Of a stretch of 64,000 nucleotides of DNA, positions 5,964 to 32,991 are shown piece by piece. The stretch's first letter is position 1; every line of letters begins with the position of its first letter. A program made the position numbers and the translations under genes. The DNA is from Halichoerus grypus (Eukaryota; Chordata; Mammalia; Carnivora; Phocidae): the NCBI RefSeq assembly GCF_964656455.1, contig NC_135716.1:106610389-106674388 (forward strand). The letters are read 5' to 3'. The notes under the pieces are model-generated. The model ran no database searches. It saw nothing but the letters and a program-made list of their open reading frames with translations, and was not told the DNA's origin.

Positions 5964-6640
5964 TGTGAGCTTGTTAGGTAGAAGCTAGACAGAAGCAGTG
6001 GACGGAATGCCCCAAGGCAGAGTCCCAAGTCCTTGAAGGGGAATAATACAGACATGAGCTAGAAGCAAGGAAGGTGATAAATAAGCTACACATTAAAAGC
6101 CCAGAGACACAACATCCTGACCTATGGCTTCCAAGACCTTGGGGTTGACAGATCAAGAGCCACAGTGCAGGGCTAGTGTTCTCCTCTTCTACCTCTGCCC
6201 CAGGGTAACCCCTAGCCTCATTATGATGCATCTGCATTGCAGGTACCATTTCTCCCCACACCCCCAGAAGAAAGGCTCCCATGATGGTTCCAGTACAAAC
6301 CTTATGGGGTCAAAACTCCCCCTCCCAACCTGTGGGAGGAGTTCCCCCAAATGATTAGAAACAGCCTCCATTAGAGACAACCCACTGTACCTCCTAGCTC
6401 CTCCCAGCCCAGAGAGGTGCAACAAATATCCAATCCCAAAACAATTTAGGGCTGGTTCCACCTCACAGAACCTGCCTGATCTCCCACCCTGAGAGTGTAC
6501 TTTCTCTTTAATAAACTGCTTTATGCTTGCCACTTTTCTTCTAGTTGTCTTTATTCCAGTGTGAATCCCCACATAAATCTTCTCATGGGGAATCCAAGGA
6601 CCAAGACCTCCATTCACACAACACAGACTCTCACTGGTAA
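5964..6640 (+). mobile_element. Probable ERV1-type LTR with poly-A signal
   Basis: Begins 'tgtgagcttgttaggtag'. It contains an LTR-like R region with 'ctctttaataaactgctt' (AATAAA near 6510) followed by a U5-like stretch, 'tccaaggaccaagacctcc'. The GC content and layout resemble gammaretrovirus-derived LTRs. I could not find matching target duplications, so both ends are uncertain. A 202-codon minus-strand frame crosses it (6189-6797) but is a shadow with no recognisable product. Confidence 0.55.
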
Positions 6641-6649
6641 CAAACTTAT

Positions 6650-6770
6650 CTCTGTTGACCCTCACAACACTTTTGTGAGGCTCATATCCCCATCCCACTT
6701 TACAGGTGGGGATACAGAGTACCAAGTAACAAGAGACAGAGCAAGAAAGAACACAAACCTTGGCTGACCC
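6650..6770 (-). mobile_element. MIR SINE fragment, source of the inverted copies at 8385-8497
   Basis: Antisense MIR pattern: 'ccctcacaacacttttgtga', 'tccccatcccactttacagg', 'aagtaacaagagacagagc'. The segment 6675-6727 is repeated exactly, in inverse orientation, at 8445-8497. Confidence 0.6.
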
Positions 6771-7554
6771 GACCTTAAAGTCCTTACACTGCTCCATGCT
6801 CCCCCAGCACTTTCAACAGGTGTAAAAAAGTGGGAGCACTATCCCTCCCGAAGGATAATCCATATCCCCAAGGAAATCCATGCAGTGTGACATTTCTACA
6901 GAAATCTAAAATTCCTGCAGAAAGGGGTTCAATATGCCAGGTTCCATTTTGCAACTTGTTATTTCTAAAACTTTTGGGCATGCCTGGGGAGAGCACATTT
7001 TAGATCCCAAATCACAATTACGTTTATTGAGAATTAAGAATAAAGATTTGGAAGACAAAATCTTTCTCTGCATCCTCAAATCAGCCTGCCTCGAATCATA
7101 TGGTTTGATGACCTTTAGGGTTCAGCATGCTCTGTGGGGTAACCGACTCCTGCACTTTTTGAGTTTTCACTGTAGGATCTCTGAAGAGGACTAGATCTAT
7201 GCTTATGGGCCTCTAATTATCACCACATGGGAATTCAGAGAACAGAAGATGTGTTTATTACCAAGCATTATGAAGCTCTTAATCAGACAAGGTTTTAAAG
7301 CATTTATAAATGCCTCACTAGATAAGACTACTTTGCTAAATGCTGAAGAGATCATGGTAAACAATACATGATTTTAAAGAATTTCTTTCAGACTGTTGGT
7401 CATAATGAGTTAGAAAGATATTCAACCAGGATCCAGAATCCCTAAAATTCTTGACCTACTACTACCAATGGCTGCTTCTACCTAAGGCAGCAATTTGAAG
7501 GGGAAATGTTGAAAAAGTGCAGCTCAGATTACTACAAACTGTATCATTATTTTT
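6771..7554. other. Unique sequence, no recognised feature
   Basis: Moderately AT-rich. Frames at 6784-6996 and 6934-7194 have no recognisable domain and no splice or promoter context. Confidence 0.45.
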
Positions 7555-7571
7555 AAAAATATAATATTGGT

Positions 7572-7753
7572 GGGCGCCTGGGTGGCTCAGTTGGTTGAGC
7601 GACTGCCTTCGGCTCAGGTCATGATCCTGGAGTCCCTGGATCGAGTCCCACATCGGGTTCCCTGCTCAGCAGGGAGTCTGCTTCTCCCTCTGACCCTCCC
7701 CCCTCTCATGTGCTCTCTCTCTCATTCTCTCTCTCTCAAATAAATAAATAAAA

Positions 7754-7785
<32 letters not shown>

Positions 7786-7792
7786 TAAAAAT
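7572..7792 (+). mobile_element. Can-SINE, 'gcgactgcc' subtype, perfect 17-bp TSD
   Basis: Complete element with head 'gggcgcctgggtggctcag', body 'gtccctggatcgagtccca', CT-rich segment and a long poly-A/(AAAAT)n tail. It is flanked by the exact 17-bp duplication 'aaaaatataatattggt' at 7555-7571 and 7793-7809. This is a young insertion. Confidence 0.97.
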
Positions 7793-7884
7793 AAAAATAT
7801 AATATTGGTAAACTTCATTGCCTTATATCTGGTATCTGATTCAAAGTCTGAAAATAATCCCATGTTAAAATTGATTCTGAGAGG

Positions 7885-8091: not shown

Positions 8092-8359
8092 AATTGATCC
8101 TGAGAGGAAGAAAATACATATATGCATGTAAATATATTTTTATTAAAATGTGTACGTATATATTACATTATATATATAAAGCAAAGTCCTCTCTGATAGT
8201 ACCTTACCCTACGACTTAAGAAGACCTGGACTAAAAGCAGTTATTCTTGAATGCTTCTTCCTATTCCGACATATACAAAATGGATCATTTTAGCATCCAT
8301 GTTAAAAATGAGTATTTTCTTGTCTTGAATAAGATACAAGTCAAGGAGTTTTGCCATAA

Positions 8360-8550
8360 TTATACATTTAAAATATATATATATTTGGTACTCTGTATCC
8401 CCACCTGTAAAGTGGGATGGGGATATGGGGATATATATATATATACTTGGTACTCTGTATCCCCACCTGTAAAGTGGGATGGGGATATGAGCCTCACCCT
8501 CAACATATATATATTTTAAATGTATAAATATATATATATATATATATATT
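8360..8550. repeat. Palindromic (TA)n locus carrying two inverted copies of 6675-6727
   Basis: Outer arms 8360-8382 and 8505-8527 are perfect 23-bp inverted repeats of AT-rich sequence. Between them lie two tandem copies of a GC-richer unit: 8385-8427 (43 bp) and 8445-8497 (53 bp), with a period of about 62 bp. The 53-bp copy equals the reverse complement of 6675-6727 exactly, and the 43-bp copy equals its central part. The spacers are (TA)n, and 8527-8550 is pure (TA)n. Any frame across it (for example 8247-8519) simply reads through the inserted copies. Confidence 0.95.
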
Positions 8551-8845
8551 TCTCTACACCAAAGAAGTTGAAGACTCCTATCTAATAAAGAAAGTTTTAA
8601 GTCATCGAACTAAGTTAAAGCACTTTTGGGAAGAAATATGGAAGGCTCAACTTAAATTTATCAGCATATGCTCTTAAAGCTGTGGAATAAAGCTATAGAA
8701 TTTAATGGGTAACATTGCCCTTAATCAAACAAGTGAAGAGCTATCTGCACAGAGACAGAATGTGACTACATAATTTCATGGTCTTTGAGAGGAGAGAATC
8801 TTGCCTTCACCATCAAGCATACATACATACATACAAATATACATA

Positions 8846-23125: not shown

Positions 23126-24190
23126 ATGATGATCTTGCAAACAAATGAATGGGGCCTATTTTCCTTACTTCAGGACGATGGCAGCATCCATTGTCAGGAG
23201 ATGTGATTTCAATACAGAGAAAGTAATACCTTCCTCCAGGAAAAGTAAGACCATTCAGTGGGCCTAACAGCTATGTGCTAAGTGGGGATGGAGAAAGATA
23301 AGACATCTCACAGCTGAGATGGTGAAGATGCTTGTGCTGGCTGATTATGCCAGTAGCATACAGATAATTATTTATCCATTCCATAATCAACTCACCCAAA
23401 ATGTACTCATTTTGCTAATCCTTGAAATGTGAAAATGAAGATGATACATCCTTACCTCCAAAATGCTCATGGTCAATAAAGTTTATTCATCTAAATAAAA
23501 TCATGTTATAATATCAAAATATGTCTATTACTTTAAAACCAAAGTAAAAAGGTAAAAAAAAAAATGATCATTCATTTTGCCTTTTCCTTTATAAGATTAC
23601 ACACATACATACTGTGCTATTTTTGTTAAAGTGCTTGCAAATAGAAGCCTGAGACCTTTCTTATTTCATTAGTCAGAAAACAAACGTTAAATAACAAAAA
23701 AGTACATCATATAATACTTAATAATAGATACCTAAGTTTATATTAAAACATTTAAACTTATATAAGATATATAAAATAATGAAATTGTGAAACACATTTT
23801 TAAACACAAAGTGTAAGAACATCAAACATCAGCTCATAAAAGCAATCACTGCCTATGTTTAATATTATAAATACACAGTTAAATTCCCATATACCTTTTA
23901 ATATACTTTTGGTCCTCAACCGATATTCTAAAGTGTATTTGTCCATGAGTCATGCTTTTCCTAGCAAAAGTTATCTAAAGTAAATGAAACAACCATGTTT
24001 GACATTTAATTGAGAAAAAAATCAAAATGTCTTTAATGTTTTGACTATTATTAGAGTATATTAAAATGCACTTTATAAAGGAATCTCTGAAAGACACTGA
24101 TCTGACATAAAATATTTTAAAGTCACTTCTTGTTATACACTGAGAAAATTAGGGAGTGAGTGAAATAGTCATAAGGAATGGTAAAAGTTA
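23126..24190. other. Mostly unique sequence; weak L2 trace
   Basis: A weak antisense L2 3'-end pattern may cover 23375-23475 ('aatgtgaaaatgaagatgat'). Nothing else was recognised. Confidence 0.35.
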
Positions 24191-24198
24191 TTGCAGAT

Positions 24199-24487
<289 letters not shown>

Positions 24488-24609
24488 CGATGAATCACTG
24501 CACTGTAACGTGTTAGAAAGGGTTACTTGAATGTAATATTTATTGAGCACTTGCTAAAAAGCCAAACTCTGCAATATAGACCTTCTCCTAAAGTGATGGT
24601 TCCATCTTT

Positions 24610-25645: not shown

Positions 25646-25660
25646 CAAAATAATCCCACT

Positions 25661-25861
25661 TTTTTTTTTTTTTTTAAGATTTGTTTATTTATTTGAGAGA
25701 GAGAGAATGAGAGACAGAGAGCATGAGAGGGAGGAGGGTCAGAGGGAGAAGCAGACTCCCTGCCGAGCAGGGAGCCCGATGCGGGACTCGATCCCGGGAC
25801 TCCAGGATCATGACCTGAGCCGAAGGCAGTCGCTTAACCAACTGAGCCACCCAGGCGTCCC
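25661..25861 (-). mobile_element. Can-SINE, antisense, 'gcgactgcc' subtype, 17-bp TSD
   Basis: Near-consensus young copy: 'aagatttgtttatttatttg', 'gcgggactcgatcccgggac', 'ccgaaggcagtcgcttaacc', head complement 'gagccacccaggcgtccc'. The exact duplication 'aaaataatcccactttt' lies at 25647-25663 (overlapping the tail) and 25862-25878. Confidence 0.97.
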
Positions 25862-32757: not shown

Positions 32758-32773
32758 TAAATAAAGGATAGCC

Positions 32774-32991
32774 GGGGCGCCTGGGTGGCTCAGTTGGTTA
32801 AGCGACTGCCTTCGGCTCAGGTCATGATCCTGGAGTCCTGGGATCGAGTCCCACATCGGGCTCCCTGCTCAGCAGGGGGTCTGCTTCTCCCTCTGCCCTC
32901 TTCCCTCTCGTGCTCTCTGTCTCTCATTCTCTCTCTCAAATAAATAAATAAAATCTTTAAAAAAAAAAAAAATAAAAATAAATAAATAAAT
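32774..32991 (+). mobile_element. Can-SINE, 'gcgactgcc' subtype, 15-bp TSD
   Basis: Head 'ggggcgcctgggtggctcag', body 'gtcctgggatcgagtccca', CT-rich segment, (AAAT)n, poly-A and then a second (AAAT)n run. The exact duplication 'aaataaaggatagcc' lies at 32759-32773 and 32992-33006. Near-consensus, so young. Confidence 0.97.

What the first reader, a model, noticed from the sequence alone, without database searches (positions are those of the whole stretch)
8360..8527. Inverted, duplicated templated insertion inside a palindromic (TA)n locus, copied from 1.7 kb upstream
The 53 bp at 8445-8497 are the exact reverse complement of 6675-6727. A second 43-bp copy (8385-8427) lies in tandem, about 62 bp away, and perfect 23-bp inverted arms (8360-8382, 8505-8527) enclose both. 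The source lies in an ancient MIR, so perfect identity means the copy is recent relative to the repeat. This looks like a serial template-switch event (fork stalling at the TA palindrome, invasion of a nearby strand, return and re-copying) followed by tandem duplication. It explains the same peptide string appearing in frames at both places. SINE or L1 insertion does not explain it, since there is no tail and no target duplication.
Basis: partly seen in the sequence, partly recalled or inferred. Interest (0 to 1): 0.75.

Follow-up and report, generated by a model that had tools for sequence, protein, structure and literature searches.

The report
Inverted copy-paste scar in TA-rich DNA
A 54-base piece of apparently non-coding mammalian DNA was copied backwards, in whole or part twice, into a TA-rich spot 1.7 kb away, most likely by a DNA polymerase that jumped templates; it is a clear example of a known kind of mutation.

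Summary
It is the only arm pair of its size in the window; of 20 exact matches of 24 nt or more left after a low-complexity filter, 3 are this locus and the other 17 look like SINE pieces by eye. The source is MIR-like. Best reading: a fairly recent germline template-switch (FoSTeS/MMBIR-like) scar with several switches, some at TA microhomology. The copying leaves the source at predicted template hairpins, with 8-nt and 6-nt back-slips. Orthologue, population and read data were out of reach (genome search did not complete), so ancestral state, age and assembly correctness are untested. It is a new instance of a described class (complex germline templated insertions, PMC8421209).

The parts
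6675..6728 (+). Source (template) of the inserted copies; overlaps an old MIR-like SINE (6646-6719, reverse orientation)
   Evidence: exact inverted match; MIR alignment with a recalled consensus
6660..6680 (.). Predicted hairpin in the source (stem 6660-6667 / 6673-6680); copy 2 stops at 6675, inside its 3' stem arm
   Evidence: single-strand DNA fold of 6640-6760, z -3.98, 0 of 200 shuffles as stable; stop
6685..6714 (.). Second predicted hairpin in the source (stem 6685-6692 / 6707-6714); copy 1 stops just past it at 6683
   Evidence: stop
8360..8382 (+). Left inverted arm, running into (TA)n
   Evidence: 23 of 23 complementary to 8505-8527
8385..8427 (-). Copy 1: exact reverse complement of 6683-6725 (43 bp)
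8425..8432 (.). 8-nt back-slip (re-copied ATGGGGAT) at the end of copy 1
   Evidence: segment parse; visible
8433..8443 (.). (TA)n stretch between the two copies
8444..8497 (-). Copy 2: exact reverse complement of 6675-6728 (54 bp)
8498..8504 (.). 7-nt filler CCTCAAC; CCTCA may be a 6-nt back-slip copy of the preceding CCTCAC
   Evidence: short, weak
8505..8527 (-). Right inverted arm, either pre-existing or copied from 8360-8382 in the event
8528..8549 (.). Outer (TA)n tract; in the one-event model, what is left of the original TA locus

Best explanation
A germline replication-repair scar. While the TA-rich locus was being copied, the nascent 3' end left its template at (TA)n, annealed by short TA homology to the opposite-sense strand 1.7 kb upstream at about 6725-6728, copied about 43 nt, slipped back 8 nt near a template hairpin and returned to the TA tract through ATAT. 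It made a second excursion over 6728 to 6675, stopped inside a template hairpin, added a short partly slipped filler and rejoined TA-rich DNA. The right arm is either the far half of an older palindrome or the left arm copied backwards during the same event. Shown: the copies, their extents, orientation and junction sequences. Inferred: the polymerase route, the direction of synthesis, the number of events, and germline origin. I infer no function; it is a neutral scar.
For: Exact inverted identity to a nearby source. Junction bases: TA (2 nt) at the entry of copy 2 and ATAT at the exit of copy 1, read. The segment parse reproduces 8350-8560 with 7-9 segments, including back-slips of 8 and 6 nt. 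Both exits from the source lie in or beside predicted template stems. AT-rich and poly(dA:dT) sequence is enriched around great-ape template-switch events (PMC7954356 section 11). Inverted templated insertions, including complex ones with several templates, are found as human germline variants: 33 of 103 and 26 of 99 curated calls were complex (PMC8421209 section 10 part 1).
Against: No orthologous empty site was seen, so insertion (rather than loss elsewhere) is inferred. The copy 1 entry junction has an extra mismatch (T for C at 8384) and no clean microhomology. The filler is only partly explained; its nearest 7-nt match (6658-6664) and the 6-nt slip are short and found after the fact. The template lies 1.7 kb away, beyond the 100 bp that MMBSearch scans (PMC8421209, passage). 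Repair of a double-strand break gives similar scars.
Confidence: 0.72

Rival explanations
1. Break repair rather than replication switching: a pre-existing TA palindrome extruded a cruciform, was cut at its centre, and end joining (for example by polymerase theta) filled the break with a patch copied from upstream; the patch was later duplicated in tandem.
For: The insert lies between the two arms, as central cleavage predicts. With the palindrome taken as given, the parse is 12.7 bits cheaper (68.1 against 80.8, or 76.9 against 89.6 without direct re-copying). Class 2 TSIPs show no TSD or tail but microhomology and added nucleotides (PMC5110952, passages).
Against: The palindrome's prior existence is not shown, and 0 of 5000 random AT-rich flank pairs gave such arms, which about cancels the 12.7 bits. 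Back-slips at template hairpins and two passes over one source fit repeated copying better than a single patch. TSIPs are described as coming from distant regions.
Confidence: 0.2
2. Artefact: an assembly or amplification chimera at a hairpin-prone TA locus.
For: Inverted chimeras with short homology are known from whole-genome amplification (recalled, no call), and the locus folds strongly (z -4.40, 0 of 200 shuffles).
Against: Two imperfectly matching copies with slips and filler would have to be consistent across reads; read evidence was not available.
Confidence: 0.07
3. A small transposon with 23-bp terminal inverted repeats that carries host sequence.
For: Perfect inverted arms flank the insert.
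Against: A search for the first 18 bases of the arm with up to 3 mismatches gives only the two arms themselves in the window (2 matches, both this locus); the cargo is a local MIR-containing sequence in two tandem copies. Genome-wide copies could not be sought.
Confidence: 0.01

Closest known systems
Complex germline MMBIR-type templated insertions (MMB-TI; PMC8421209: passages, section 10 part 1)
   Same: Inverted copy of a nearby template, short junction homology, several template switches, germline variants
   Different: Template 1.7 kb away (their tool searches within 100 bp) and the same source is used twice; here no unmutated reference allele is available
Short-range template switching, four-point model, great apes (PMC7954356: 12 of 13 passages, section 11)
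   Same: Reverse-complement copying, AT-rich setting, creation of perfect inverted repeats able to form hairpins
   Different: That model describes local mutation clusters with one excursion; here there are at least two excursions and a kilobase-range template
Templated sequence insertion polymorphisms, class 2 (PMC5110952: part 1 of 4, passages)
   Same: Templated insert, no TSD or poly(A), microhomology and added bases at junctions
   Different: TSIPs are described as templated from distant regions, often through RNA; polymorphism is untested here
Fold-back inverted insertions at breaks in yeast (PMC11724301: start of abstract only)
   Same: Templated inverted duplications by fold-back, the route that the right arm may have taken
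   Different: Most of those are about 5-34 bp, made at induced breaks in yeast

Membership tests
MMBIR/FoSTeS-type templated insertion | Insert identical to a template elsewhere nearby | tested here: met
   54 of 54 and 43 of 43 bases
MMBIR/FoSTeS-type templated insertion | Microhomology at junctions | tested here: inconclusive
   TA at copy 2 entry and ATAT at copy 1 exit; copy 1 entry has a mismatch, copy 2 exit has filler; no control for TA-rich chance homology was run
MMBIR/FoSTeS-type templated insertion | Several template switches | tested here: met
   7-9 segments in the four parses made
MMBIR/FoSTeS-type templated insertion | Ancestral allele without the insert | not testable with these tools
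   no carnivore genomes in the collections; the genome search unanswered
Class 2 TSIP | No TSD and no poly(A) | tested here: inconclusive
   no tail; a TA-only TSD cannot be recognised in (TA)n
Class 2 TSIP | Polymorphic, templated from a distant region | tested here: not met
   the source is 1.7 kb away, not distant; polymorphism not testable
SINE/L1 retrotransposition | 3' tail and target-site duplication | tested here: not met
   no tail and no direct duplication outside TA; by contrast the SINE at 7572-7791 has an 18-bp duplication, 7554-7571 / 7792-7809

The most novel reading that the evidence does not exclude
One mutational event made both the double inverted insert and the perfect 23-bp-armed hairpin: after two excursions to a source 1.7 kb away the polymerase copied the left arm backwards before rejoining the TA tract, so a fragile TA palindrome was born from template switching rather than being its cause. 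Stops at template hairpins would then record where the polymerase fell off.
Probability: 0.4. Interest if true: 0.4.

Novelty: new member of a known kind. Interest (0 to 1): 0.27.

Why it matters
It is an unusually legible scar: one source, two passes, slips and hairpin stops can be read from a single sequence. With orthologues it would show whether AT-rich palindromes cause such events or result from them, which bears on how fragile TA-rich palindromes arise. As a single non-coding case it changes no general view.

Tried and rejected
Looked for further copies of the 37-nt core in genome contigs and viral contigs: 0 matches in each; these are prokaryotic and viral collections, so this says nothing about carnivores. 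Looked for other local templated copies (16 nt or more, within 3 kb, complexity filter): 15 matches, 3 of them this locus, the other 12 SINE pieces, short repeats beside SINEs or AT-rich matches as judged by eye. Transposon reading: the arm occurs nowhere else in the window. Separate MIR insertions: the copies share an exact end-to-end piece of one diverged MIR rather than MIR-like divergence; the copies themselves do not beat shuffles against the MIR consensus (MIR+ 19.0 against a shuffle maximum of 19.0). A local source for the filler: only 7-8-nt matches, not decisive. Literature: a search for dinucleotide repeat + templated insertion + palindrom + inverted found 0 papers; with min_terms 3, 105 papers held three of TA repeat, templated insertion, replication fork, microhomology, and none of the 10 listed is about this arrangement by its title and abstract start. 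I make no claim that it is absent from print.

Full report
What is there. The sequence, repeat finder and exact extension agree. Reading left to right: left arm 8360-8382 running into (TA)n; copy 1 at 8385-8427, the exact reverse complement of 6683-6725; a short GGGAT plus (TA)n stretch; copy 2 at 8444-8497, the exact reverse complement of 6675-6728; the filler CCTCAAC at 8498-8504; right arm 8505-8527, exactly complementary to the left arm; then an outer (TA)n tract to 8549.

Is it chance? No. About 2e-22 exact inverted 54-mer pairs are expected in the window. Of 20 exact matches of 24 nt or more that passed the low-complexity filter, 3 belong here and 17 look like SINEC-type pieces by eye (family name recalled). 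The arm pair is the only one with arms of 16 nt or more in a span up to about 320 bp. Random flanks with the local composition reached 22 but not 23 in 5000 trials, so arm length alone is only moderately surprising in TA-rich DNA.

Source. The copies reproduce this individual diverged MIR piece and its flank, so they are copies of this place and not other MIR insertions.

Age. No substitution is seen in a crude 140 site-lineages (or one, if the base at 8384 is a later change). At assumed rates of 1e-9 to 2e-9 per site per year the 95% upper limit is about 11-21 Myr, or 16-32 Myr with one change (rates recalled). The event is young compared with a MIR, but whether it is polymorphic, species-specific or older is open.

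Mechanism. A dynamic-programming parse of 8350-8560 into copied pieces gives: left flank to 8384; source 6725 to 6686 inverted; an 8-nt back-slip; the TA tract; source 6728 to 6675 inverted; a 6-nt back-slip (CCTCA) and two unexplained bases; then the right arm. Folding the source as single-stranded DNA gives two stems, 6660-6667/6673-6680 and 6685-6692/6707-6714 (energy z -3.98, 0 of 200 shuffles as stable). Copy 2 ends inside the first stem and copy 1 just past the second, which suits a polymerase falling off at template hairpins. Two junctions are at TA or ATAT; the copy 1 entry is not clean. Synthesis could also have run in the opposite direction; the sequence does not tell.

Did the palindrome come first? 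If it did, the parse costs 68.1 bits; if only one TA tract existed and the right arm was copied backwards from the left, 80.8 bits (76.9 and 89.6 without direct re-copying). The difference, 12.7 bits, is one switch. It is about offset by the rarity of such arms in random AT-rich flanks (0 of 5000). I call it undecided. The one-event form also accounts for the outer TA tract as the remainder of the original locus.

Known kinds. Complex inverted templated insertions with several switches are described as human germline variants (PMC8421209: 33 of 103 and 26 of 99 curated calls), with junction microhomology. Great-ape template-switch events sit in AT-rich DNA and create perfect inverted repeats (PMC7954356). 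FoSTeS, MMBIR and serial replication slippage are held to be essentially indistinguishable from breakpoints (PMC4056370, passages); I therefore commit to template switching and not to one named pathway.

Limits. Orthologues, populations, reads and the rest of the genome could not be examined; the genome search was unanswered. That the window is from a carnivore rests on recalled SINE type. Absence of function is assumed: only 2 ORFs of 120 aa or more are listed in the window; one (6189-6797, minus strand) overlaps the source, the other lies at 24188-24550, and neither was followed up.

Noticed in passing
window 7554-7809: A SINE of carnivore tRNA-SINE type (name recalled) with a long A tail, flanked by an 18-bp perfect direct repeat (7554-7571 / 7792-7809), between source and target; a good marker for dating against orthologues.
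   Followed up: no
window 25646-25861 and 32758-32991: Further short direct repeats (18 and 16 bp) flanking what look like SINE insertions.
   Followed up: no
window 6189-6797, minus strand: A 202-aa open frame that runs across the source; no homology search was made, probably chance.
   Followed up: no
window 24188-24550, minus strand: A low-complexity open frame rich in Phe, Leu and Ser from a pyrimidine-rich (TTCC/TTTC-like) stretch.
   Followed up: no
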